Shown here: positions 12,475 through 45,306 of the stretch, piece by piece
Numbering within the stretch: position 1 is the stretch's first letter
Layout: each line of letters opens with the position of its first letter
Origin: Thomasclavelia sp.
GTDB taxonomy: Bacteria; Bacillota_I; Bacilli_A; Erysipelotrichales; Coprobacillaceae
Assembly: GCA_028749475.1 (NCBI GenBank)
Contig: JAQVWN010000007.1
Location: 1 to 64,000, forward strand
Reading direction: 5' to 3'
DNA length: 64,000 bases
Made by a program: the position numbers and the translations under genes
The notes under the pieces: generated by a model
Database searches by the model: none
The model's input: the letters and a program-made list of their open reading frames with translations, nothing else
Told to the model about the DNA's origin: nothing

Positions 12475-12548
12475 AGGGGTATAGTTCAATGGTAGAATAC
12501 CGGTCTCCAAAACCGTTGATGTGGGTTCAACTCCTACTACCCCTGCCA
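12475..12548 (+). tRNA. tRNA-Trp (anticodon CCA)
   Basis: Seven-base acceptor arms AGGGGTA/TACCCCT, discriminator G and encoded CCA at 12546-12548. Anticodon loop CTCCAAA reads UGG. The T arm GTGGG-TTCAACT-CCTAC is intact. Only UGG is decoded, which agrees with TGA being used as a stop in this genome. The last 17 nt (12532-12548) recur at 17572 and 44673, marking the gene as the integration site of the T7SS island. Confidence 0.95.
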
Positions 12549-12627
12549 AAATAGCACAAAACGCGCATAAATGCGTGTTTTTTTGTCATTTTAGAACAAA
12601 AGTGCATACAAAAATGCATACTTTTTT
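12532..12627 (+). repeat. Left attachment-like repeat: tRNA-Trp 3' end plus terminators
   Basis: The tRNA end (12532-12548) and about 80 nt after it are repeated almost unchanged at 17572-17667: the hairpin GCAT-AA-ATGC with T run (12559-12584) and a second hairpin ending GCATACTTTTTT (12599-12627). The third copy at 44673 keeps the tRNA end and the first hairpin. This arrangement is what integration at a tRNA 3' end leaves behind (attL, internal att, attR). Confidence 0.75.
12559..12585 (+). terminator. Terminator of tRNA-Trp
   Basis: AAACGCGCAT-AA-ATGCGTGTTT stem (one G-T wobble) followed by a long T run. Confidence 0.8.
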
Positions 12628-12795
12628 CTCAATTTTGATTTGAAATCGTATAAAATTAACTATTTTATGGATGAATAATTGTACTTCTTTAAAAAATTAA
12701 TAATTTACATAATCTCTATTAATATCATTGAATATCTGAATAAATTGTTTCTATATATTTTTCTTTTTAATAAGAAATTAAAGTATAATTACTAC
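12628..12795. other. AT-rich non-coding stretch before esxA
   Basis: No ORF or strong structure is visible. It is a diverged version of 23135-23260, the stretch before the second esxA, so both belong to the ancestral left end of a module. Confidence 0.5.
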
Positions 12796-12824
12796 TTGTA
12801 ATAGGTCTATTTTGTAAGTAGAAT
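12796..12824 (+). promoter_or_regulatory. Promoter of esxA copy 1
   Basis: TTGTAA at 12796-12801, 17-nt spacer, TAGAAT at 12819-12824. The sequence conserved between the two esxA copies begins right after this, at the expected transcription start near 12830. Confidence 0.6.
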
Positions 12825-12829
12825 AAAAG

Positions 12830-13009
12830 TGGCTGGTGAGTGAATTATGGAAGATTTAATGATTTTTGTGTCCTATTTTTTAATTAATAATATGGATTAG
12901 GGAAAATCAATAATTTTTTCGTATCCATTTTTTCTTTACTTAAATAAGTAAAGGGTAAGTCGTTAAGGTGTTTTATGGCACCAAAAAATTAAGAAGAGAG
13001 GAATTTATT
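12830..13009 (+). promoter_or_regulatory. Conserved ~180-nt esxA leader RNA, copy 1
   Basis: The 5' untranslated region is identical to that of the second esxA (23299-23479) except for one T, whereas the promoters differ. Possible helices: ATGGAT (12892-12897)/ATCCAT (12923-12928), CTTTACTT (12934-12941)/AAGTAAAG (12946-12953), and GGTG (12967-12970)/CACC (12979-12982). The same CACC could pair instead with GGTG at 12836-12839. A 17-codon ORF at 12847-12900 is frameshifted in the other copy. Candidate cis-regulatory RNA; family not recognised. Confidence 0.5.
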
Positions 13010-13300
13010 ATGGCAGGAACAATTAGATTAAATGCCGAAGGTTTACAAAGTGCGTCAAACAATTTAAAACAAGAAGGAAATGAATTTGAAACATTAGTAA
13101 ATCAAATGCAATCAGTAGTAAATAGTTTACCGGAAGCTTGGGAAGGTGAAGCAGCAAATGCTTATGTTGAACAATTTAGTCAACTAAAACCAAATCTTGA
13201 TAAAACAAGAGAATTAATTGCTACAATAGCTACTCAAATTGATCAAACTTTACAAGCAGCACAAGAATTAGACTCAAATATTGCTTCAAAATTAAAATAA
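13010..13300 (+). CDS. esxA: WXG100 protein EsxA, copy 1
   Basis: 96 aa, the hallmark small secreted substrate of type VII secretion, forming a helical hairpin dimer. It has the WxG-type turn as AWEGEAANAYVEQF (about residues 42-55) between two amphipathic helices. The ATG at 13010 has AGAAGAGAGG upstream. The protein is identical to the one at 23480-23770, with only silent differences in DNA. It has its own long leader and a terminator right after the stop, so it can be made in excess of the downstream genes. Confidence 0.95.
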   Translation: MAGTIRLNAEGLQSASNNLKQEGNEFETLVNQMQSVVNSLPEAWEGEAANAYVEQFSQLKPNLDKTRELIATIATQIDQTLQAAQELDSNIASKLK

Positions 13301-13308
13301 GTAATAAT

Positions 13309-13342
13309 ACGCTCCGAGTTGTTTACTATACGGAGCGTTTTG
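13309..13342 (+). terminator. Terminator after esxA copy 1
   Basis: ACGCTCCG (13309-13316) and CGGAGCGT (13331-13338) followed by TTTTG. The same hairpin follows esxA copy 2. It separates esxA from the effector operon, which begins 25 nt later. Confidence 0.7.
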
Positions 13343-13366
13343 TCTAATTTATGTAGGGGGGATCTC

Positions 13367-17312: not shown

Positions 17313-17571
17313 TAGAATTAACACAATACACTAACTTATATTTGTGCATTTAAACTTATAATTATAGTTATGATAGTTGTTAAAAACATAACTTTAAAGA
17401 GTAAGTATAAATATGATGCTCAATAGGACTAAAACATAGCCAAAGTATGCATACAAAAATGCATACTTTTTTCTAAATATTATGTTTATAATCAACAATA
17501 TCTATACATTTTAGGATCGTTAAACCACGTATTTACGCCGTTTATCATAAGGTGTTCATACTGAGATGTTT
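17313..17571. other. Right end of module A (non-coding)
   Basis: No gene. From about 17420 it matches 44503-44672 closely: the phrase before the terminator, the terminator at 17442, then about 100 nt leading into the tRNA-Trp fragment. This is the shared right arm of two related elements. Confidence 0.6.
17442..17473 (+). terminator. Module-end terminator A
   Basis: AAAGTATGCAT-ACAAAA-ATGCATACTTT with T run; the same hairpin closes modules B (23103) and C (44543). Confidence 0.8.
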
Positions 17572-17667
17572 TCCTACTACCCCTGCCAAAATAGCACAAA
17601 ACGCGCATAAATGCGTGTTTTTTTGTCTTTTTAGAACAAAAGTGCATACAAAAATGCATACTTTTTT
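17572..17667 (+). repeat. Internal attachment-like repeat with tRNA-Trp 3' end
   Basis: 17572-17588 equals the last 17 nt of tRNA-Trp, and identity with 12532 onwards continues through both terminator hairpins with only a few changes. The upstream arm differs from the tRNA but equals the arm before the third copy at 44673. It is the junction between two tandemly inserted elements. Confidence 0.75.
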
Positions 17668-17771
17668 CTAATTTTTGATTTGAAAATTGTTAAAATGTTA
17701 TATTTTTTTGGTTAAATCTAAGGAAAGAAAGAATCTATGTAATTATTTTAATTCTAATTTCTTTACTAGAC

Positions 17772-18490: not shown

Positions 18491-20374
18491 ATGGGTTATT
18501 GTTATGACAGTATAAAGGTAAATGGTTTAAAAAAACAAATATCAAAAGATATTGAAGAAAAGAGAAAATATTTTGATGATATAAAAATGAAAACTTCAAA
18601 GATAGTTGAATCCGATTCAACAAGTCAAACGATAGACAGTACCAAATTAGTATTATCAGATATTAATACAATAATAGCAGCAGTTTATGTATACTATGAT
18701 TCGTTAGAAAATAGTTATACCAAATTAAATAATTCATTTAAAAGTCAAATTGGAAATGTTTATAATATAACATCGGTAAATGAAGATGAAATTCAAAATC
18801 AAAATGAATTTTTATTAAAGATATCGAATGGTCTTAAAGATACAATAGATAATTACGAAACATTAGATAGTGATACTACTAGATTAGTAAGTTCTTCTGA
18901 AATAGCATTAAATGTTACTAATAAAGCAATTAAGAATAACAATAATATTTTAGAAGATTTTCATGGTTTTTGTTCTAATGCTGACAGTTGTGTATCTGAA
19001 ATAAACAGTCTAATCACAAGTATTGAAAATGCAATTAATTCTTTAACAAAGGTTGTTGGTAGTTATAAAGGAACAGAATATGATCGAACATCTTTAGACC
19101 TTAAAGGATTAGCTCTATCTACATTAAAGACTAAAGGTTATATTGATTCTAACGGAAATATTACATCTGCAGGTTATAAATATTTAGAAAAATGTTTTAA
19201 AAAGGAACCAAAAGATTTGAATTACGAAAATATTTTTTTAGCAACTGAGTTAATTACTTATGTTGACACTGCTAAAGAACTTAAAAAAGTCCTAGATGCA
19301 GGGTATTGCAATAAGATAAAAGTTAATGGGAAAATATACTATCAGTGTTCACCATCCTTTAAAGTTATTATAGTGGCTGGCAGTGCTAAACTTCAACATG
19401 ATGCTCTGATAAATGGAAATTCTAACTGGGACTCATATAAGAAGAAAATATTATGTAATGATGCCATGATCTGTCAAATTAATCAATGCGGATATGTTGA
19501 TGAAAAAAACAAGTTTTCAAAGATGATGGACATGTCAGGATCATCTAAAGCCGAAATCAAGAAGCTTCAAAAACATGATAATGTCTCTTATTTTTATTTT
19601 TCTGATGATGAAATAAGCATCCAAACAAGTTATGAAGCAAAAACTTATGGAACTTCTTTAGATAAATGTTATTGTAAGCGGATAGATATCAAGCCTTATG
19701 ATACTGAAGCTGATTTAAATTCAGCTATTAATGAAAAAGAGAAGGAAAGGGCTTCTGAAGATGCAAAAATGGCTTTATTTGAAGAAGTCAACACAATAGT
19801 GATGGATATAGGTACTGGAGGAACGTATAGTAAAGTAACTGGAAATATTAATAAGGCTGAGAAATATAATAATCTATTAACTAATTTCTTAAGAGATTAT
19901 TGTGGTGTAGATATCACAAAAGATGGTACTTCGAAAACAACTAATATTGAAGGAACTGAAGCTGATTTTAGTTATAATTTAACATTGATAGAAGATACGA
20001 TGAGCACTTTTTCTTTAAAAGCAACTTATGATAACACCAATGGGTATATAAATCTTTCGGTTGGTGAAAAAACAAAAGAAAAAATTGCTCATTATAATCA
20101 AGTGATTGATGAGATCAATGAACGTAATTCTAGTAACGATATTAAACATATCTATAAATATAATTCAAAATCTAATCTTGATCCAAATAGTATTAAATCA
20201 TTTTATAATAAGTATAAAAAAAGTCCATATATAAAAGAGTTTTTTCCAAACGGAAGTCCCTATGAAAAGAATTCTACCTTAGTAATACCTAAAATCACTT
20301 ATAATACTATAGTTAATAATTATCAAAAAGCAGAAATGATTGCACAATTTATAATAGAACTGGAGGGAAACTAG
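18491..20374 (+). CDS. LXG-type T7SS effector with unrecognised C-terminal domain
   Basis: 627 aa. The first ~215 residues are long helices opening MGYCYDSIKVNGLKKQISKD, like LXG targeting domains. Residues ~225-627 form the candidate toxin domain: KGYIDSNGNITSAGYKYLEK, a cysteine-containing middle (CYCKRIDIKPYD), ERASEDAKMALFEEVNTIVMD and a variable end followed by ITYNTIVNNYQKAEM. No catalytic motif is obvious. The DNA from 19393 to about 19975 is repeated almost exactly at 21511. It is followed at the next base by a lipoprotein gene, implying a target at or outside the membrane (inference). SD is GAGGAG. Confidence 0.65.
   Translation: MGYCYDSIKVNGLKKQISKDIEEKRKYFDDIKMKTSKIVESDSTSQTIDSTKLVLSDINTIIAAVYVYYDSLENSYTKLNNSFKSQIGNVYNITSVNEDEIQNQNEFLLKISNGLKDTIDNYETLDSDTTRLVSSSEIALNVTNKAIKNNNNILEDFHGFCSNADSCVSEINSLITSIENAINSLTKVVGSYKGTEYDRTSLDLKGLALSTLKTKGYIDSNGNITSAGYKYLEKCFKKEPKDLNYENIFLATELITYVDTAKELKKVLDAGYCNKIKVNGKIYYQCSPSFKVIIVAGSAKLQHDALINGNSNWDSYKKKILCNDAMICQINQCGYVDEKNKFSKMMDMSGSSKAEIKKLQKHDNVSYFYFSDDEISIQTSYEAKTYGTSLDKCYCKRIDIKPYDTEADLNSAINEKEKERASEDAKMALFEEVNTIVMDIGTGGTYSKVTGNINKAEKYNNLLTNFLRDYCGVDITKDGTSKTTNIEGTEADFSYNLTLIEDTMSTFSLKATYDNTNGYINLSVGEKTKEKIAHYNQVIDEINERNSSNDIKHIYKYNSKSNLDPNSIKSFYNKYKKSPYIKEFFPNGSPYEKNSTLVIPKITYNTIVNNYQKAEMIAQFIIELEGN
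19393..19975 (+). repeat. Direct repeat in the LXG effector gene, copy 1
   Basis: Starts at ACTTCAACATGATGC inside the effector gene and corresponds to 21511-22095, nearly identical until codons for ADFSY. Lies upstream of the most variable part of the effector tip. Confidence 0.75.
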
Positions 20375-21510: not shown

Positions 21511-22095
21511 AACTTCAACATGATGCCAAATAAATGGAAATTCTAACTGGGACTCATATAAGAAGAAAATATTATGTAATGATGCCATAATCTGTCAAAT
21601 TAATAAATGTGGATATGTTGATGAAAAAAACAAGTTTTCAAAGATGATTGACATGTCAGGATTATCTCAAGCCGAAATTAAAAAGCTTCAAAAACATGAT
21701 AATGTCTCTTATTTTTATTTTTCTGATGATGAAATAAGCATCCAAACAAGTTATGAAGCGAAAACTTATGGAACTTCTTTAGATAAATGTTATTGTAAGC
21801 GGATAGATATCAAGCCTTATGATACTGAAGCTGATTTAAATTCAGCTATTAATGAAAAAGAGAAGGAAAGGGCTTCTGAAGATGCAAAAATGGCTTTATT
21901 TGAAGAAGTCAACACAATAGTGATGGATATAGGTACTGGAGGAACGTATAGTAAAGTAACTGGAAATATTAATAAGGCTGAGAAATATAATAATCTATTA
22001 ACTAATTTCTTAAGAGATTATTGTGGTGTAGATATCACAAAAGATGGTACTTCGAAAACAACTAATATTGAAGGAACTGAAGCTGATTTTAGTTA
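21511..22095 (+). repeat. Direct repeat in the LXG effector gene, copy 2
   Basis: Second copy within the headless tip; differences are few and include a small indel near 21525. Confidence 0.75.
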
Positions 22096-22495
22096 TGAAC
22101 TATCACGTATAAGTAGTACGATGAGGACTTTTTCATTACAATCAAGTTATGATAAAACGAATGGATATATAAATCTGTCAGTAACTGAAGAAACAAAAGA
22201 TAAAATAACTCATTATAATAAAGTGATTGATGAGATTAATGAACGTAACTCGGGTGTTGATATAGACAATATATTGAAATATAATTCAAAATCAAGTTTT
22301 AGTTCAGAGTCTATTATAGGCTTTTATAACGATTATAAAGACAGTCCATATATAAAAGAATTTTTTCCAAACGGAAGTCCCTATAAAAAGAATTCTACCT
22401 TAGCAATACCTAAAATTACTTATAATACTGTGGTTAATAATTACCAAAAAGCAGAAATGATTTCAGAATTATTAATTAGAATGGGGGGAATATAG
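21511..22495 (+). pseudogene. Headless copy of the LXG effector C-terminal domain
   Basis: The DNA matches the effector gene from 19393; a small indel near 21525 breaks the frame, and the open part runs from the ATG at 21644 (283 aa). Nearly all bases agree until about 22095, after which the protein diverges (DFSYNLTLIEDTM versus DFSYELSRISSTM) before ending in the same ITYNT.VNNYQKAEM. There is no targeting domain, no ribosome-binding site and no partner genes. It resembles the orphan tips stored beside polymorphic toxin loci. Confidence 0.7.
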
Positions 22496-22971
22496 ATGAA
22501 AAATATTAAAAGAATTATTATCACAATATTAGTGTTCACTCTATTCTTTGTGACAGGATGTTCGAAAAATTGGAGTGAAGAAAAAAAATATATGAGAAGA
22601 TTTCAGATTATGGATTCAAATGGACAGAGACGACATTTGACCTATCAACCAAGAATTTTGAATTTGATTTTAGCGCGTATCATGAAAATCATGAAGAAAT
22701 TTTACAATGTTATGTACATGAAAATGGTGAAATTACTTTAATTATTTATACTTTTGATAAAGATTATGGAAATTATTATAATCATTGTGCCCCATATGAT
22801 CCCGGTAATTACTATAGTGATAGCAAAGCTAAGATGGTAAAAGCCAAACAAGATTTTAAGAAATTTTTAAAGAAAGCTAAAATCAAAGAGTCTGAGTTTT
22901 ATAAATTTATGGATTATGTTTGGTATCTTCATGATGAAAAGGGAAAGTTCCCGGATAAAAAGGGAGAATAG
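22496..22971 (+). pseudogene. Frameshifted SKNWSEEK-family lipoprotein, copy 4
   Basis: Begins with an intact signal peptide and SKNWSEEK, then loses one base in the A tract near 22586 relative to its paralogues. After that the reading frame shifts, but the remaining codons in the other frame still encode the family's blocks (YDPGNYYSD, KMVKAKQDF, MDYVWYLHDEKGKFP) up to TAG at 22969-22971. Recently inactivated immunity gene of the headless effector copy. Confidence 0.75.
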
Positions 22972-23265
22972 AAAATAAGTATAATGCACTAACCTATTTA
23001 TTTGTGTATTTATATTTATAATTATAGTTATGCTGATTGCTCAAAATGTAGCTTTAAAGAATAAGGATAAATATGATGTTTAATAGGTCTAAAAACATAG
23101 CCAAAGTATGCATATAAAAATGCATACTTTTTTCTAAACTTTGATCTGAATTCTTATCAAATTAATCATTAACATAATCTCTATAAGAATTATTAAATAA
23201 TTAAATAACTTGCTTGTACATATTTAAATATATTTTAACTAAGGAGTTCGAATATAAATTAATAC
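22972..23265. other. Module B right end and module C left end (non-coding)
   Basis: No gene. It contains the module-end terminator at 23103-23134 followed by a diverged version of the stretch after tRNA-Trp (12628 onwards). No tRNA fragment is found here, unlike at 17572 and 44673. Confidence 0.5.
23103..23134 (+). terminator. Module-end terminator B
   Basis: AAAGTATGCAT-ATAAAA-ATGCATACTTT with T run, as at 17442 and 44543. Confidence 0.8.
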
Positions 23266-23293
23266 TTGAAATATACTCATACCATAGTACAAT
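23266..23293 (+). promoter_or_regulatory. Promoter of esxA copy 2
   Basis: TTGAAA at 23266-23271, 16-nt spacer, TACAAT at 23288-23293. The boxes differ in sequence from those of copy 1 although the transcribed leader is the same. Confidence 0.55.
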
Positions 23294-23298
23294 AAAAG

Positions 23299-23479
23299 TG
23301 GCTGGTGAGTGAATTATGGAAGATTTAATGATTTTTTGTGTCCTATTTTTTAATTAATAATATGGATTAGGGAAAATCAATAATTTTTTCGTATCCATTT
23401 TTTCTTTACTTAAATAAGTAAAGGGTAAGTCGTTAAGGTGTTTTATGGCACCAAAAAATTAAGAAGAGAGGAATTTATT
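23299..23479 (+). promoter_or_regulatory. Conserved esxA leader RNA, copy 2
   Basis: Same sequence and the same candidate helices as 12830-13009, with one extra T in the T run near 23331. That T shifts the frame of the short leader ORF, so the conserved entity is more likely RNA than peptide. Confidence 0.5.
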
Positions 23480-23770
23480 ATGGCAGGAACAATTAGATTA
23501 AATGCCGAAGGTTTACAAAGTGCGTCAAACAATTTAAAACAAGAAGGAAATGAATTTGAAACATTAGTAAATCAAATGCAATCAGTAGTAAACAGTTTAC
23601 CGGAAGCTTGGGAAGGTGAAGCAGCAAATGCTTATGTTGAACAATTTAGTCAACTTAAACCTAATCTTGATAAAACAAGAGAATTAATTGCTACAATAGC
23701 TACTCAAATTGATCAAACTTTACAAGCAGCACAAGAATTAGACTCAAATATTGCTTCAAAATTAAAATAA
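23480..23770 (+). CDS. esxA: WXG100 protein EsxA, copy 2
   Basis: 96 aa, identical in protein sequence to the product at 13010. Only a few silent substitutions separate the genes. ATG at 23480 with AGAAGAGAGG upstream. It heads the machinery locus (essA, esaB, essB, essC, esaA follow), the usual place for esxA, so this copy is probably the ancestral one. A terminator follows. Confidence 0.95.
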   Translation: MAGTIRLNAEGLQSASNNLKQEGNEFETLVNQMQSVVNSLPEAWEGEAANAYVEQFSQLKPNLDKTRELIATIATQIDQTLQAAQELDSNIASKLK

Positions 23771-23778
23771 GTAATAAT

Positions 23779-23815
23779 ACGCTCCGGGTTGTTTACTATA
23801 CGGAGCGTTTTGTCT
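23779..23815 (+). terminator. Terminator after esxA copy 2
   Basis: ACGCTCCG (23779-23786) and CGGAGCGT (23801-23808) with a T-rich tail; partial termination here would lower expression of the machinery relative to EsxA. Confidence 0.7.
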
Positions 23816-23838
23816 TATTTATAGAAAGGAAAATCATA

Positions 23839-34267: not shown

Positions 34268-34629
34268 TGCCAGACAAGACAAAAGCTACCCAAATAAGTA
34301 TAGATGAACAAATGGTCCAATATGCTGAAAAGATATTACCAATTGTCTATCAAATAACATATTATCAAAATAAACAGGTAGAACTCTTCGAAATGTTTAA
34401 TAACTATAAAGGTGGAGCCCAAAAAGAAGTTCTAGATCACCAAGAAGGAGTTTTAAAACAAATAAATACCATAGCTGAAGGTTATAATATGTTAGCAACC
34501 AATCTACAAGAACTAATCGAAGCCTTTTTAAAACAAGATACTGCTAGAGCCCAACAATTCTACAATAATATCGTAAGTAATACTGGTAAATCACTCTTAA
34601 TAGAAATGGGAGTTATTGAAAAAAAATAA
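34267..34629 (+). CDS. WXG100-like effector partner
   Basis: 120 aa from the ATG at 34267, which overlaps the previous stop codon; an in-frame TTG at 34252 is less likely. All-helical with central YQNKQVELFEMFNNYKGGAQ and a GlnAla-rich second helix. The last base of its stop is the first of the toxin ATG (TAATG), the tightest coupling in the cluster, so it is the best candidate for the direct partner of the toxin. Confidence 0.55.
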   Translation: MPDKTKATQISIDEQMVQYAEKILPIVYQITYYQNKQVELFEMFNNYKGGAQKEVLDHQEGVLKQINTIAEGYNMLATNLQELIEAFLKQDTARAQQFYNNIVSNTGKSLLIEMGVIEKK

Positions 34630-36365
34630 TGGGAAAATATTATATCAGCATTAAAGCAAATTGGAATCAAGAGAAAAAAGAACATGATTTGGTAGATCAA
34701 GGACTTGATATTTTAAAAAAGGTAGATTATTTATTAGATAGTGTCTTTGATGATGATCTGTCACATGATACATATGGGCAAATGAGAACAGTTCATTATG
34801 AAAGAAAAGATAAAGCACTTCAAAAAGTAAAAGAAAAGAATGAAAATCTAACAAACTATGCTAGTGGTATTCATAGTTTGTTAGAAGATAAAGAAGATGA
34901 TTTTCATAAAGAGTTTAGTAGTGTATTAGAAGACTTATCAACAATGAATATCAATGATATAAAAATAGATAATTCATTGAATATTGAAGGTACAACAGCC
35001 TATACAGATTATAGTGACTCTGGAGGCTATCAAGGAGCTTCCAATGGAAAAATAATACTAGTAAAGAATATTAAAAATAAAATAACATATGCCGATATCA
35101 TGGCTAAAACCGACATGCTTGGTTTAAAAGATGAATTTAAGAAATATAAAGACAAACAAGAAAAGAAACTCGGTAAAAAGTATACTAGTGCTGAGATATT
35201 AAAACTAAAACAAGAATGGTATAAAGCCGTAACAGATACTTCATTTGATCATACAGTATATACAGATGAATGGAGAGCTAATCTATCTAAAGTGCTAGAT
35301 TTTATACCTGTAATTGGCGGAATTAAGAATATAGGAGAAGCAATTGCAGGTAAAAGTATTACAGGCGAACATCTAAGTAGTGGTGAAAGAGTAATGAATG
35401 CTGTCCTTGGAAGCGCATCTATAGCAGTAGATGCAATTACCCTAGGGCATGGCTCAGGTATTGTTGGAATAGCTAAGGTAGCTGCCAAAGAGACAATAGT
35501 TCGAGGAGCAACTATGTTAGGAACTGAGGCAGTAAGTACGGGATTACAAAAACTAGGACTACCACCAGAAATAGCATTTGTGATATCATTAGGTATAACT
35601 ATAGGAGCGGCGTATGTAGGAGGAAAGTTATACAGTAAATATGTAGGAGGTAATTATTCCTCACTTGGAAAGACATCAGTTGAAGATGGTGTCGAAAATA
35701 GTAAATATATAGGAAGTGAGTATTCAGCCTTTGGAGACATGTCACCCGAAGATGGTGCAAGATATAGTAAATATTGGGATGAAGTAGCTAGTGGAACTCA
35801 TAATTTACCAGGCATGGATGCAGATGATTATGCTCGGTATGTAAAAGGAATTAATAAACTTGATGAAATAAAGATTAACAAGGCAGAAGGTTATTTTACA
35901 CATCAAGAATTAGAAAAACAGAATATTCTAGAAGAATATTTGAACACAAGTAAAGCAAATACCTCATTGTTAAATGAGGGTGGTAGTAAGACATATTATC
36001 CAGGAAGTGAAAATCAACCATTGACTGAAAATGTAGCTAATACATTTACTGGAGGAACATATTCAGAAACAGTACTGCCAGAAGATACAACATTTTATAG
36101 GGTTTATTCATCAGATAGTAATATGATTGAAAGATATATGTCTAGAACACCTCAAAATGGTGGAATGCAATCACAGCTCGATTTAGCACTGAATCCCGAT
36201 TGGGGGAATAATGCTACGTATGTTGAAAAGGTAATGGTTCCTAAAGGAACAACTATTTATGAAGGAACAGCTGCTCCACAAATAATTAACGGAGGCGCTG
36301 GGGTGCTACCAGGTGGAGGAAATCAAGTGTATATAAAAGATGTGAATGGAGAGTGGTTTAAATGA
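34629..36365 (+). CDS. Polymorphic T7SS toxin: helical head, pre-toxin TG domain, ART-like tip
   Basis: 578 aa. Residues 1-115 are helical (targeting head). Residues ~205-330 form the pre-toxin TG domain (VLDFIPVIGGIKNIGEAIAG, LSSGERVMNAVLG). Two repeats follow (YSSLGKTSVEDG, YSAFGDMSPEDG). After LLNEGG the tip begins: FYRVYSSDSN, SRTPQNGGMQSQLDLAL, VMVPKGTTIYEG and LPGGGNQVYI, resembling ADP-ribosyltransferase-like toxin domains; the catalytic set is not proven. DNA 34737-35985 recurs at 41533-42781 with only about six changes. Stop overlaps the next gene (ATGA), the likely immunity gene. Confidence 0.72.
   Translation: MGKYYISIKANWNQEKKEHDLVDQGLDILKKVDYLLDSVFDDDLSHDTYGQMRTVHYERKDKALQKVKEKNENLTNYASGIHSLLEDKEDDFHKEFSSVLEDLSTMNINDIKIDNSLNIEGTTAYTDYSDSGGYQGASNGKIILVKNIKNKITYADIMAKTDMLGLKDEFKKYKDKQEKKLGKKYTSAEILKLKQEWYKAVTDTSFDHTVYTDEWRANLSKVLDFIPVIGGIKNIGEAIAGKSITGEHLSSGERVMNAVLGSASIAVDAITLGHGSGIVGIAKVAAKETIVRGATMLGTEAVSTGLQKLGLPPEIAFVISLGITIGAAYVGGKLYSKYVGGNYSSLGKTSVEDGVENSKYIGSEYSAFGDMSPEDGARYSKYWDEVASGTHNLPGMDADDYARYVKGINKLDEIKINKAEGYFTHQELEKQNILEEYLNTSKANTSLLNEGGSKTYYPGSENQPLTENVANTFTGGTYSETVLPEDTTFYRVYSSDSNMIERYMSRTPQNGGMQSQLDLALNPDWGNNATYVEKVMVPKGTTIYEGTAAPQIINGGAGVLPGGGNQVYIKDVNGEWFK
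34737..35985 (+). repeat. 1,249-bp direct repeat, copy in the intact toxin gene
   Basis: Same length and no gaps against 41533-42781; the only differences I find are about six substitutions, all in the last ~140 bp. It ends exactly where the toxin tips begin, at the codons for NEGG. Such a repeat allows homologous exchange of tips. Confidence 0.85.
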
Positions 36366-37466: not shown

Positions 37467-37735
37467 ATTAAAGGGACTGGGAATCCCAGATAGAAAATCG
37501 CAAGTGTGGCTACACTTGCTGTGCTTGCTATTAGATGTTTTTGCTGTTTTAAAGGTATCGGTATGAGATAAGATTGGATATGGATTTGGTGAGATTTCCA
37601 ACCTATATTCTTATAAAAAGTATTAAGATTTGAGAGAATTATTGGCATATTGAAAGAGCAGTTGTAGAAGGAAGTGAAAGGAGAAGAAGAAATCGCTTCT
37701 GAACTTCCTAAAGAACTGCTCTTTTGAATAAGCGA
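37467..37735 (+). repeat. Structured intergenic element, copy 1
   Basis: Homologous to 40408-40625. Contains the hairpin GCAAGTGT-ggct-ACACTTGC and, after an AT-rich gap, a long terminator-like stem AAAGAGCAGTT/AACTGCTCTTT enclosing an inner GGAAGT/ACTTCC pair. It follows the immunity genes of the TG toxin; the second copy follows the SMI1/KNR4 gene. Probably a conserved cassette-end terminator and recombination site. Confidence 0.6.
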
Positions 37736-37759
37736 ACATTCGGCGAACTTTTTAATAAA

Positions 37760-37990
37760 TGGGCAGACAAGGCAGTGACTGGGCGGTAAGATGCGGATGG
37801 AGTATAAGATACTTCCCAGTAAGCCAGCGGCACTTCTTTGGTGCCTTATGTCTGGTTAGAGGTAAATAGACTAAACCACCCTTGTCCATGCAGCACAAGC
37901 GTAAGACTGTAGAGAGACTTATTAGTTGAGGTTGTCAGTATCTCGTCTTTATGGAAGTATCAAACTCCAATGATTAAAGTGAATGAATTG
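37760..37990 (+). ncRNA. Probable IS110 bridge-RNA region
   Basis: Non-coding left end of the IS, the place where IS110-group elements encode their bridge RNA. Structure visible: ACTGGG (37778-37783) with CCCAGT (37815-37820); GGCAC-TTCTTT-GGTGCC (37829-37845); and an open stretch CTAAACCACCCTTGTCC (37871-37887). The 10 nt ACCACCCTTG (37875-37884) are complementary to CAAGGGTGGT at the right junction (39504-39513). Boundaries and loops are inferred. Confidence 0.55.
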
Positions 37991-38001
37991 GAGACGATAC
38001 G

Positions 38002-39213
38002 ATGAAAAGAGAAGACTGTATATATGTTGGTATAGACCTACATAAAGAGACACATACAGCAGTGATACTTAATTGCTTTAATAAGAAATTGGGAGAGATA
38101 ACATTTAACAATATCCCATCTGATTACTCTAAACTTCTAAAAAAGGTTAATAAGTGCTGTCCTGATGATAAAGAGGTTGTCTATGGACTGGAGAATGTTT
38201 ATGGATATGGTAGAACTCTAGCCGTATGGCTACTAGAAAGAAACTGTATAGTTAAAGATGTTAATCCATCCGTATCTAATAGACAAGCAAAGCATAGGGG
38301 AGCGATGTATAAAAAGAGTGATCGTGATGATGCACAGGCTATAGCACTAGCTACTATTAATCTATTAGATACTCTTCCTAATGCACATCCGGATGAAGGA
38401 TATTGGGCACTCAGTTTACTTGTTCATCGTAGAGATAACATCATGAGACAGAGGATACGATTGGTGAATCAACTTCATGAACAACTGTGTATGGCATATC
38501 CGGAATATAAGACCTTCTTTTGTGATATAGGTAGACCCACAGCACTGTACTTTTGGAGGAAGTATCCATCAAGAAGATACCTACAAGAAATGAGTGCAGA
38601 AGAGTTGTCAAAAGACCTAAAAGAGATAAGCCATAACAGAGTCTCTGTTAAATCATGTGAGAGAATACTTGAATCTATAAAAGCAGATAAACTACCAGAT
38701 AGTATCCATCAAGAATCAAGAGATGCTGTAACGGTAGGAATAGTAGATGATCTGATGCATTATGATAAGCAGCTAAAGAGTGTAGAAGAAGAGATGGCAA
38801 GACTGTATCATGCTATGAACTGTACATTAACCACTATTCCAGGAATTCATATCATAACCGCAGTAAAGATACTGTCTTGTATTGGAGATATTTATAGATT
38901 CTCTACTCCAAATAAACTGGCACAGTTTGCAGGGATAGCACCATTAAGACTGTCTTCAGCAGGCAAAGGTAAGGATATGGTACAGAAACAGGGGAATGGA
39001 AGACTAAGAGCTACAATGTACTTTCTAGCAATTCAGTCTATACAGACATCCGCAAAAGGTAAGGCAAGAAACCCTATATTCAGAGAATACTTCGATAAGA
39101 GAGTTAAAGAAGGTAAGAATAAGAAACAGATACTAATCTGTATCTCCAGAAGACTGATAAACATCATATATGGGATGTTAAAGAATGGAACAGAATACAG
39201 ACTGGAGAGGTAA
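38002..39213 (+). CDS. IS110-family transposase (DEDD recombinase)
   Basis: 403 aa. The N-terminal RuvC-like domain shows the DEDD residues in VGIDLHKETH, GLENVYGYG and KKSDRDDAQAIA. The C-terminal Transposase_20 domain shows TTIPGIHIITAVKILSCIG and the serine-bearing APLRLSSAGKGK. Full length and apparently intact, so the element may be active. It carries out RNA-guided recombination between donor and target DNA with the bridge RNA in known members of the family. Confidence 0.93.
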   Translation: MKREDCIYVGIDLHKETHTAVILNCFNKKLGEITFNNIPSDYSKLLKKVNKCCPDDKEVVYGLENVYGYGRTLAVWLLERNCIVKDVNPSVSNRQAKHRGAMYKKSDRDDAQAIALATINLLDTLPNAHPDEGYWALSLLVHRRDNIMRQRIRLVNQLHEQLCMAYPEYKTFFCDIGRPTALYFWRKYPSRRYLQEMSAEELSKDLKEISHNRVSVKSCERILESIKADKLPDSIHQESRDAVTVGIVDDLMHYDKQLKSVEEEMARLYHAMNCTLTTIPGIHIITAVKILSCIGDIYRFSTPNKLAQFAGIAPLRLSSAGKGKDMVQKQGNGRLRATMYFLAIQSIQTSAKGKARNPIFREYFDKRVKEGKNKKQILICISRRLINIIYGMLKNGTEYRLER

Positions 39214-40407: not shown

Positions 40408-40625
40408 TATGGGACTCATAGATAAGAACACAGCAAGTGTGACTACACTTGCTGTGTTTGTAATAGATGATATTCATGTTTTGAGATGGTAAGTTCTTTA
40501 AACAATCTCTTTCAAAAAGTATTAAGATTTGAGAGAATAATTGGTGTGTTGAAAGAGCGGTTGCAAAAGGAAGTGAAAGTAAAGAAATTGATCTTTACTT
40601 CCTGAATAACTGCTTTTTTTAAATA
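40408..40625 (+). repeat. Structured intergenic element, copy 2
   Basis: Same order of elements as 37467-37735: GCAAGTGT-gact-ACACTTGC hairpin, the phrase AAAAAGTATTAAGATTTGAG, then a long stem AAAGAGCGGTT ... AACTGCTTTTTTT with an inner AGGAAGT/ACTTCC pair. A short insertion/deletion in the middle distinguishes the copies. Confidence 0.6.
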
Positions 40626-40763: not shown

Positions 40764-41361
40764 AACAATAAAAGAATTAATAAAAGAACTACTAAAAGAT
40801 CAACACTATCGTATAATCGAAAGAGCTGATGAAATTGTGCTATATGGAGAAGATGAACCCTATCCAGAAGATTACATTAGTATTAAATCGTTTCTTGAGA
40901 AAAAAGAGTTTGTAGTATATGACGGGTGTCGCAATGTCAGATACATACTCTTTAAAACAAATGATGAAAATTTAGCAGCTATCTGTGGAGTTATTAAATA
41001 TAAAAGACTAGATGATAATCTAATCGACAGAGTAACTATGAAAAAAATAGCAGAGTGCGTAGAATCAGAAGGTGAACAACCTGCTTTATCATTCATTACA
41101 AACAATTTTAGTGATTCAGTTTATTCCGTAGGTGTAGAAGAATATGGAAAGATATCTTTAATAAAAAAAGATGACAAAATTGATATTAAATACTTGGGAA
41201 AATATATTGTTAAGGATGAAATCATAAGAATAGCATATTCTGTATTTTATAACTATTGTTTAAAATTGAAATATATTAAATCTTATTATTATTCAAATGT
41301 AGAAAAGATAAATAGTTATGTATCAATAGAGCAAGTATGCGAATGGTATATATTTTCTTAG
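40756..41361 (+). CDS. Candidate immunity protein of the unknown toxin remnant
   Basis: 201 aa from a TTG at 40756, with AAAGGAAA about 11 nt upstream and coupled to the toxin remnant. Contains SFITNNFSDSVYSVGVEEYG and a C-terminal helical part ending EQVCEWYIFS. The 3' half of the gene plus 40 nt of flank is repeated at 44132-44463 as a frameshifted copy. Family not recognised. Confidence 0.55.
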   Translation: MIKTIKELIKELLKDQHYRIIERADEIVLYGEDEPYPEDYISIKSFLEKKEFVVYDGCRNVRYILFKTNDENLAAICGVIKYKRLDDNLIDRVTMKKIAECVESEGEQPALSFITNNFSDSVYSVGVEEYGKISLIKKDDKIDIKYLGKYIVKDEIIRIAYSVFYNYCLKLKYIKSYYYSNVEKINSYVSIEQVCEWYIFS

Positions 41362-41410
41362 TAGGAAACATTTAAATAGTAACAAAGTATTTTATAATTT
41401 ATATAAATTA
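41080..41410 (+). repeat. Repeat of the unknown immunity gene, copy 1
   Basis: Second half of the intact gene and its downstream flank, matching 44132-44463. Marks an ancestral duplication of an immunity cassette. Confidence 0.6.
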
Positions 41411-41532: not shown

Positions 41533-42781
41533 GATAGTGTCTTTGATGATGATCTGTCACATGATACATATGGGCAAATGAGAACAGTTCATTATGAAAG
41601 AAAAGATAAAGCACTTCAAAAAGTAAAAGAAAAGAATGAAAATCTAACAAACTATGCTAGTGGTATTCATAGTTTGTTAGAAGATAAAGAAGATGATTTT
41701 CATAAAGAGTTTAGTAGTGTATTAGAAGACTTATCAACAATGAATATCAATGATATAAAAATAGATAATTCATTGAATATTGAAGGTACAACAGCCTATA
41801 CAGATTATAGTGACTCTGGAGGCTATCAAGGAGCTTCCAATGGAAAAATAATACTAGTAAAGAATATTAAAAATAAAATAACATATGCCGATATCATGGC
41901 TAAAACCGACATGCTTGGTTTAAAAGATGAATTTAAGAAATATAAAGACAAACAAGAAAAGAAACTCGGTAAAAAGTATACTAGTGCTGAGATATTAAAA
42001 CTAAAACAAGAATGGTATAAAGCCGTAACAGATACTTCATTTGATCATACAGTATATACAGATGAATGGAGAGCTAATCTATCTAAAGTGCTAGATTTTA
42101 TACCTGTAATTGGCGGAATTAAGAATATAGGAGAAGCAATTGCAGGTAAAAGTATTACAGGCGAACATCTAAGTAGTGGTGAAAGAGTAATGAATGCTGT
42201 CCTTGGAAGCGCATCTATAGCAGTAGATGCAATTACCCTAGGGCATGGCTCAGGTATTGTTGGAATAGCTAAGGTAGCTGCCAAAGAGACAATAGTTCGA
42301 GGAGCAACTATGTTAGGAACTGAGGCAGTAAGTACGGGATTACAAAAACTAGGACTACCACCAGAAATAGCATTTGTGATATCATTAGGTATAACTATAG
42401 GAGCGGCGTATGTAGGAGGAAAGTTATACAGTAAATATGTAGGAGGTAATTATTCCTCACTTGGAAAGACATCAGTTGAAGATGGTGTCGAAAATAGTAA
42501 ATATATAGGAAGTGAGTATTCAGCCTTTGGAGACATGTCACCCGAAGATGGTGCAAGATATAGTAAATATTGGGATGAAGTAGCTAGTGGAACTCATAAT
42601 TTACCAGGCATGGATGCAGATGATTATGCTCGGTATGTAAAAGGAATTAATAGACTTGATGAAATAAAGATTAACAAGGCAGAAGGTTACTTTACACATC
42701 AAGAATTACAAAAACAGAATATTCTAGAAGAATACTTAAACACAAGTAAAGCACATACCTCATTGTTAAATGAGGGTGGTA
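41533..42781 (+). repeat. 1,249-bp direct repeat, headless toxin copy
   Basis: Starts with GATAGTGTCTTTG, equal to 34737 onward in the intact toxin, and runs without gaps to the tip junction. Confidence 0.85.
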
Positions 42782-44131: not shown

Positions 44132-44413
44132 AGATACTTTATCATACATTACAAACAATTTTAGTGATTCAATTTATTCCGTAGGACTAGAAGAGCATGA
44201 GAAAATATCTTTTATAAAAAAGATGATAAAATTGATATTAAATACCTAGGGAAATATATTGTTAAAGATGAAATTATAAGAATAGTATATTCTGTATTTT
44301 ATAACTATTGTTTAAAATTGAAATATATTAAATCTTATTATTATTCAAATGTAGAAAAGATAAATAGTTATGTATCAATAGAGCAGGTATGCGAATGGTA
44401 TATATTTTCTTAG
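44132..44413 (+). pseudogene. Truncated, frameshifted copy of the 40756 immunity gene
   Basis: Matches 41080-41361 closely, with one base missing in the A tract near 44220 and the first half of the gene absent. Identity continues about 50 nt past the stop. Confidence 0.75.
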
Positions 44414-44502
44414 TAGAAAACATTTCAATAGTAATAAAGTATTTTATAATTTATATAGAATTTAGTTAGAACTATATTGATGGATAAAAAAACGTTCTGA
44501 AG

Positions 44503-44729
44503 GAAGAAGTTAATATATGTTCAATAGGACTAAAACATAGCCAAAGTATGCATACAAAAATGCGTACTTTTTTCTGAATATTATGTTTATAATCAACAAT
44601 ATCCATACATTTTAGGATAGTAAAATCACGTGTTTACGCCGTTTATCGTAAGGTGTTCATACTGAGACGTTTTCCTACTACCCCTGCCATGAAAAGATAA
44701 AACACGCATAAATGCGTGTTTTTTTTACG
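44503..44729 (+). repeat. Right attachment-like repeat of the T7SS island
   Basis: 44503-44672 matches 17420-17571, the arm before the internal site; 44673-44689 equals the last 17 nt of tRNA-Trp; then AAACACGCAT-AA-ATGCGTGTTT plus T run (44700-44729), the best-paired form of the tRNA terminator. Host genes resume after this, so it is the right boundary of the island. Confidence 0.75.
44543..44574 (+). terminator. Module-end terminator C
   Basis: AAAGTATGCAT-ACAAAA-ATGCGTACTTT with T run; one change relative to the copy at 17442. Confidence 0.8.
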
Positions 44730-44781
44730 CTTTGGATATCAAAATGCGTACTTTCTTAAATTAGTATTTGAAATAATATAA

Positions 44782-45306
44782 TCAAACATTTTTTGAATCA
44801 ATAACTGGTTGCTTAAGAAAAATCTTATTAATATATTTATCTAAATTCAAAAAAGTAAATAAATAACTACATCCTATTCCAACTATTCCGCCAACAACAT
44901 TTAATATGATGTCATCGATATCAACTATATGATTAGGAAAAGCTAAAGATATATCAACAATGTATTGCAAAACTTCAATACCTAATGAACATAATGCACA
45001 AATTATTACACATCTGATAAAACTCAATTTTGTGAATTTTTTAAGCATAAAGCCAAGAGGCAGTAATAATAAAATATTACCAAATACTTGAATTGGATTA
45101 TTAGATATTGTTTGGATAATTGTTTTAAATGGTATGAGTTGAATATAATTAGGGGCCATTCCAATCTCTTGATAGAATTCATCAATACTACTATATGAAC
45201 CTATGGTGATAGGAAATTGTGTAATTAAAACAATCCCTAATATATAAATTATAATAAGTATAAAGCCTAATATGTTTAATTGTTTTTTTTTAAATATATC
45301 TTTCAT
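44782..45306 (-). CDS. VanZ-like membrane protein
   Basis: 174 aa. Four to five hydrophobic segments; VanZ signatures NPIQVFGNILLLLPLGFML, and DIDDIILNVVGGIVG near the C-terminus. Family members can lower glycopeptide susceptibility, but for most the function is unknown. The gene lies just outside the island. GAGAGTAT... is a poor ribosome site; AGGTGGTTAGAGATG (minus strand) provides AGGTGG. Confidence 0.85.
   Translation of the reverse strand: MKDIFKKKQLNILGFILIIIYILGIVLITQFPITIGSYSSIDEFYQEIGMAPNYIQLIPFKTIIQTISNNPIQVFGNILLLLPLGFMLKKFTKLSFIRCVIICALCSLGIEVLQYIVDISLAFPNHIVDIDDIILNVVGGIVGIGCSYLFTFLNLDKYINKIFLKQPVIDSKNV

What the first reader, a model, noticed from the sequence alone, without database searches (positions are those of the whole stretch)
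12830..13009. Identical ~180-nt leader RNA in front of both esxA genes
The leaders are the same except for one T, while the promoters just upstream have diverged. The conservation begins at the predicted transcription start. The only short ORF in it is frameshifted between copies, so RNA function is more likely than a peptide. Alternative GGTG/CACC pairings near the ribosome-binding site suggest a switch. A recent gene conversion covering leader and gene is the competing explanation.
Basis: partly seen in the sequence, partly recalled or inferred. Interest (0 to 1): 0.58.

Follow-up and report, generated by a model that had tools for sequence, protein, structure and literature searches.

The report
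Duplicated secretion gene kept identical
Two copies of a small secretion gene, together with the DNA stretch in front of them, are almost identical, most likely because the whole unit was recently homogenised by recombination; the stretch may be a regulatory RNA, but nothing here shows that it is.

Summary
In detail: the ~180 nt before the esxA genes at 13010 and 23480 differ by one T, while the DNA just upstream differs at 40 of 136 aligned sites. But the identity is not a leader feature. It is one tract (12822-13345 / 23291-23815, 525 columns, 99%) covering leader, gene (3 changes, all synonymous) and a terminator-like hairpin, inside an older duplication. Synonymous sites are as young as the leader, so recent homogenisation (gene conversion or similar recombination) explains it. 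Two other young tracts in the island (567 and 1202 columns) have edges inside genes, with no leader involved. A transcribed leader is plausible. Its fold is fairly stable (z about -2.4 to -3.3; best 4-8% of windows here), but pairing of the ribosome site is no higher than in shuffles, and the proposed GGTG/CACC switch is 8-10 kcal/mol worse than the local hairpin. No related leader was found, and no esxA relative close enough to test conservation. Weak hint of constraint: 0 of 5 substitutions fall in the leader (P 0.008; 0.03 counting the indel). Mostly ordinary.

The parts
12603..13352 (+). older duplicated block, copy 1 (partner 23109-23822); the part just before 12822 is about 70% identical
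12822..13345 (+). homogenised tract, copy 1: end of -10 box, leader, esxA, terminator-like hairpin; 99.0% identical to 23291-23815
   Evidence: maximal high-identity segment
12796..12824 (+). promoter-like TTGTAA-17-TAGAAT, copy 1; the hexamers stay alike while 10 of 13 spacer columns 12804-12816 differ
   Evidence: consensus match only, number in region not above shuffles
12830..13009 (+). putative esxA 5' leader, copy 1
12847..12900 (+). 17-codon upstream ORF, copy 1 (13 codons and another frame in copy 2, 23316-23357)
12871..13002 (+). predicted helix 12871-12885 with 12987-13002, pairing UCCU with the AGGA of the ribosome-binding site and enclosing three hairpins (12892-12928, 12932-12955, 12967-12982)
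   Evidence: prediction only; ribosome-site pairing not above shuffles
13010..13300 (+). esxA copy 1 (WXG100, 96 aa)
   Evidence: PF06013, E 4.3e-16
13309..13345 (+). terminator-like hairpin ACGCTCCG...CGGAGCGT with T-rich tail, copy 1
   Evidence: not listed by the scan
23109..23822 (+). older duplicated block, copy 2
23266..23293 (+). promoter-like TTGAAA-16-TACAAT, copy 2
23299..23479 (+). putative esxA 5' leader, copy 2
23480..23770 (+). esxA copy 2, identical protein, in front of essA (23839), a YukC/EssB gene (24520) and an FtsK-type ATPase gene (26200)
23779..23815 (+). terminator-like hairpin, copy 2

Best explanation
This is a duplicated esxA transcription unit of a type VII secretion island whose two copies were recently homogenised by recombination between direct repeats 10.5 kb apart (gene conversion, or an equivalent exchange). 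The copied tract runs from the -10 box through the leader and the gene to the end of the terminator-like hairpin. It lies inside an older duplicated block whose upstream part was too diverged to take part, or was simply not covered. The leader is identical because it was in the tract, not because it is specially conserved. Shown: one continuous young tract, synonymous sites as young as the leader, similar tracts elsewhere in the island. Inferred: recombination as the agent, and a real transcript starting near 12830. The leader probably is the 5' UTR of esxA; any regulatory role is open.
For: Tract 12822-13345 / 23291-23815 is 99.0% identical with a sharp drop to about 70% upstream and loss of homology downstream. 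All 3 gene changes are synonymous: 3 of about 59 synonymous sites, against 40 of 136 sites upstream (Fisher P 6e-5); selection on the protein would not hold synonymous sites. The island has two further long tracts: 19409-19975 / 21530-22096 (98.4% over 567 columns, then mostly 62-95% per 40 columns beyond) and 34737-35938 / 41533-42734 (99.8% over 1202), with edges inside open frames. A tract edge within 10 nt of the predicted start has roughly a 7% chance in the 316 nt of homologous DNA before the ATG. Precedent: conversion among ESX paralogues in M. tuberculosis, 36 events in 7 ESX genes, median tract 101 bp over all events (PMC13061034, passages read).
Against: The tract matches the predicted transcription unit at both ends, to about 8 nt at the 5' end and about 0 at the 3' end; the 3' end is not independent, because the older block itself ends at 13352. 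No substitution lies in the leader (0 of 5 over leader, synonymous sites and 3' flank; P 0.008), or 1 of 6 changes if the indel counts (P 0.033), a weak hint of extra constraint. No second genome was found in which to date the duplication or see one copy alone. A draft assembly (43 contigs) could blur near-identical copies.
Confidence: 0.75

Rival explanations
1. The leader is a cis-acting regulatory RNA under selection: a three-hairpin junction closed by a helix (12871-12885 / 12987-13002) that covers the ribosome-binding site and is opened by a ligand, an sRNA or a protein. (Not exclusive of the conversion tract.)
For: Fold energy z -2.4 to -3.3 against dinucleotide shuffles; the same junction predicted in both copies; 0 of 5 substitutions in the leader. 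Precedent for control of esxA translation by RNA: S. aureus RNAIII pairs with the start of esxA and raises a reporter about 12-fold (PMC9217828, passages read).
Against: 33-40% of shuffled leaders hide the ribosome site as well. 7.2% of 320 windows here have z of -2.5 or lower. No Rfam family fits. No relative in the other 308 of 309 genomes of the order, none at the esx loci fetched. No covariation available.
Confidence: 0.2
2. Upstream-ORF attenuator: ribosomes translating the short ORF (either frame) melt the helix that hides the esxA ribosome site, so esxA translation is coupled to leader translation.
For: GGTGA 7 nt before the ATG at 12847; in both copies the ORF runs across the 5' strand of the helix although the frame differs (12847-12900 over 12871-12885; 23316-23357 over 23341-23355).
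Against: Peptide not conserved; the helix covers the site no better than chance; no expression data.
Confidence: 0.1
3. One reading: 12835-12838 competes with 12967-12970 for CACC 12979-12982.
For: The motifs are there, two GGTG and one CACC.
Against: Distal pairing probability 0.000, cost 8.1-10.5 kcal/mol against the local hairpin.
Confidence: 0.02
4. No conversion: a circular or foreign cassette carrying its own esxA entered by homologous recombination at esxA, leaving two near-identical repeats with different flanks.
For: Downstream flanks differ wholly and upstream flanks by about 30%; the island carries repeats of the tRNA-Trp 3' end at 12532, 17572 and 44673.
Against: Needs a donor with the same esxA unit but another upstream region; no such genome was found.
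Confidence: 0.15
5. RNA-templated copying: a cDNA of the esxA transcript replaced the other copy, hence edges at start and terminator.
For: Tract ends match the predicted transcript.
Against: No reverse transcriptase (PF00078) in the genome, 97.9% complete; the same search rings in 3 of 14 control genomes. Identity extends a few bases upstream of the predicted start.
Confidence: 0.01

Closest known systems
Gene conversion among ESX paralogues (esxK/L, esxO/P, esxM/N) of Mycobacterium tuberculosis (PMC13061034, passages)
   Same: short WXG100-type paralogues homogenised by recombination
   Different: different phylum; here one pair, non-coding leader and terminator included, direction and timing unknown
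esxA mRNA control by RNAIII in Staphylococcus aureus (PMC9217828, passages)
   Same: post-transcriptional control at the esxA start region is possible in principle
   Different: a trans-acting sRNA pairing with the coding start; nothing of the kind was shown here
Translation attenuators with a leader ORF such as ermC (recalled, from no call)
   Same: short ORF before a possibly hidden ribosome site
   Different: no conserved peptide, no known stall signal, no tested response

Membership tests
WXG100 / EsxA in a type VII secretion island | WXG100 domain, about 100 aa | tested here: met
   PF06013 E 4.3e-16
WXG100 / EsxA in a type VII secretion island | neighbouring EssA, YukC/EssB and FtsK-type ATPase genes | tested here: met
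   PF10661, PF10140, PF01580
Gene-conversion tract | sharp identity step inside an older homologous block, synonymous sites included | tested here: met
Gene-conversion tract | phylogenetic proof: the copies cluster by genome rather than by locus in several genomes | not testable with these tools
   only this genome of the genus is held
Cis-regulatory RNA (riboswitch or thermometer) | match to a known family | tested here: not met
Cis-regulatory RNA (riboswitch or thermometer) | covarying base pairs across species | tested here: inconclusive
   0 of 55 predicted pairs covary, with only two near-identical rows; no homologues
Cis-regulatory RNA (riboswitch or thermometer) | mutually exclusive pairings of similar energy | tested here: not met
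   the one proposed alternative is 8-10 kcal/mol worse; other alternatives were not scanned for

The most novel reading that the evidence does not exclude
The leader is a lineage-specific translational regulator of esxA: a three-hairpin junction closed by a helix over the ribosome site, opened by ribosomes on a short ORF whose span, not its sequence, matters; it keeps both esxA copies under one control in spite of diverged promoters.
Probability: 0.1. Interest if true: 0.5.

Novelty: new member of a known kind. Interest (0 to 1): 0.2.

Why it matters
It shows how a near-perfectly conserved leader can arise from recombination between duplicates in a secretion island, so identity between paralogues within one genome is weak evidence for RNA function. 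If the leader did regulate, it would tie the dose of EsxA, a shared part of such systems, to a signal read by RNA.

Tried and rejected
Related leaders: DNA search in the genus (only this genome held) and family (11 of 43 genomes matched including our own; the other 10 only by pieces of 25-48 nt); RNA model of the two copies in 309 genomes of the order (1 of 309, our own) and over the window plus 11 fetched esx loci (only the two copies score well; next best E 0.27); plasmid DNA search (no match); exact leader words in viral contigs (0 hits each). EsxA relatives: family 3 of 43 including our own, order 5 of 315 including our own, class 2 of 395 including our own, phylum 2 of 392 including our own at the E-value limits of those calls; genome contigs gave one, Mogibacterium pumilum, 70%; viral contigs none; plasmids 10 records, all under 60%; phages 3 records, all under 60%. 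In the two nearest, esxA has no such leader: in M. pumilum it follows the preceding gene after about 30 nt, and in the 49% relative it follows a terminator-like run after a short gap. Both are too distant for the lack of a leader to count as a refutation.

Trans-acting partner: own genome searched with the leader at E up to 10. Of 39 matches only the two copies are significant; the rest have E 0.08 or more. Reverse transcriptase: none. Known RNA families: none above threshold on the leader; the best is a chance-level match, E 1.6. Literature searches in the held library: 'type VII secretion' + riboswitch + esxA, 8 papers, of which I opened one; 'esxA mRNA' + untranslated region + Staphylococcus aureus, 1 paper; gene conversion, esxA, paralog, WXG100, any three of the four, 39 papers, 12 listed; 'type VII secretion' + leader RNA, 1 unrelated paper; WXG100 + tRNA gene + integrative + type VII secretion, 2 papers, not opened. 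PMC11217815 was searched by words; 'untranslated', 'promoter', 'upstream of' and 'duplicat' each had 0 occurrences. None of the listings or passages that I saw describes this leader.

Limits: the structure claims rest on energy models; the 53 gene starts were measured at a fixed offset, not at each true ribosome site (17% of 53 reach 0.7 paired, against 0.68-0.73 for the two esxA copies); the 7% edge chance and the 0-of-5 test are rough and after the fact.

Full report
What is there. The window lies in an unnamed low-GC genome (29% GC in the window; 1.84 Mb, 43 contigs), the only one of its genus held. A type VII secretion island follows a tRNA-Trp gene (12475-12548). It has esxA copy 1 (13010-13300) in front of a run of small genes and an effector-like gene with an Mbeg1-like domain, and esxA copy 2 (23480-23770) in front of essA, a YukC/EssB gene and an FtsK-type ATPase gene. 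The two EsxA proteins are identical, and no third copy was found in the genome.

The leaders 12830-13009 and 23299-23479 differ by one T. Upstream, 40 of 136 aligned sites differ, with 11 gap columns. Promoter-like hexamers sit at matching places in both copies, TTGTAA-17-TAGAAT and TTGAAA-16-TACAAT. The spacer columns 12804-12816 differ at 10 of 13 while the hexamers stay alike, which speaks for a real promoter, although the number of promoter-like matches in each region is not above shuffles.

The identity is a tract, not a leader. The maximal high-identity segment is 12822-13345 against 23291-23815, 525 columns at 99.0%. It holds one indel (leader), three synonymous changes in esxA (13123, 13186, 13192) and one change in the loop of the terminator-like hairpin (13317); the next change, 13346, ends the segment. 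It lies inside an older block, 12603-13352 / 23109-23822. Synonymous sites changed at 3 of about 59, against 40 of 136 upstream (P 6e-5). If both copies dated from the older duplication and selection had held the protein and an RNA, synonymous sites should have drifted like the upstream DNA. They have not, so the gene part was homogenised recently, and the leader is continuous with it.

Internal control. The same island has other young tracts within older or otherwise unlike sequence: 19409-19975 / 21530-22096, 567 columns at 98.4%, then mostly 62-95% per 40 columns beyond; 34737-35938 / 41533-42734, 1202 columns at 99.8%; and a shorter one, 41235-41364 / 44287-44416, 130 columns at 99.2%. The first two begin inside open frames (18491-20374 and 34629-36365). 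Sharp edges thus arise here without any leader. An edge within 10 nt of the predicted start has about a 7% chance in the homologous DNA before the ATG, not strong evidence for a functional edge. The 3' edge is bound by the end of the older block.

Is there RNA function? Fold energy is low: z -2.55 and -3.05, -2.4 and -3.3, with 0.25-1.5% of 400 shuffles as stable. Yet among 320 windows of the same length on both strands, 7.2% have z of -2.5 or lower and 4.1% have -3.0 or lower. The predicted fold has a helix 12871-12885 / 12987-13002 that pairs with the ribosome-binding site and encloses three hairpins. But 33-40% of shuffled leaders cover the site as well, and the centroid of copy 1 in the shorter fold lacks the helix. 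No intrinsic terminator was listed in either leader, so control, if any, would more likely act on translation. The short ORF keeps its span over the helix in both copies though its frame differs; that leaves a translation-coupling model open, at low probability.

A weak result for constraint: over leader, synonymous sites and 3' flank (13301-13352, so 13346 is counted), none of five substitutions is in the leader, P 0.008; with the indel, one of six, P 0.033. The numbers are small, the choice of sites was made after seeing the data, and a further partial conversion would look the same.

Conservation elsewhere could not be tested. No leader relative was found in the order (1 of 309 genomes, our own), at the esx loci fetched, in plasmids or, by exact words, in viral contigs. 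But no close esxA relative was found either: the nearest are 70% (Mogibacterium pumilum) and 49%, with no comparable leader.

Known precedents. Conversion among ESX paralogues is documented in M. tuberculosis (PMC13061034, a preprint; passages read). RNA control of esxA translation is documented in S. aureus through RNAIII (PMC9217828; passages read). Neither shows what happens here, but both make each half ordinary in kind.

Verdict. A recently homogenised, duplicated esxA transcription unit; the leader is probably its 5' UTR, with regulation unproven.

Noticed in passing
12532-12656, 17572-17696, 44673-44807: Repeats of the tRNA-Trp 3' end with its downstream hairpin and TGCATAC repeats (95% and 71% alike) bound the stretches 12.5-17.6 and 17.6-44.7 kb; they look like attachment sites of integrative modules added in tandem at tRNA-Trp. 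No integrase turned up among the 30 window proteins scanned with Pfam.
   Followed up: partly
17448-17476, 17643-17671, 23109-23150: A 29-nt direct repeat flanks the middle tRNA-end site, and a like sequence stands alone before esxA copy 2, as if a site had been lost by recombination between such repeats.
   Followed up: no
34737-35938 and 41533-42734: 1.2 kb at 99.8% shared by two effector-like genes with a pre-toxin TG domain and different C-terminal ends: exchange of C-terminal ends on a common front part.
   Followed up: partly
16830, 20375, 20972, 22496: Four related lipoprotein-like genes (77-81% identical DNA in pairs), each beside effector-like genes; the one at 22496 is broken by a frameshift.
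   Followed up: no
37478-38001 and 40410-40622: An IS110-type transposase gene (38002-39213) has a long non-coding stretch before it, a possible guide (bridge) RNA (recalled idea). Parts of that region are repeated at 40410-40622, and window 40401 has the strongest fold signal of the 320 scanned (z -7.6). No Rfam match up to E 0.5.
   Followed up: partly
394-478: c-di-GMP-I-GGC riboswitch (64.1 bits, gathering 59) near the start of the window.
   Followed up: no
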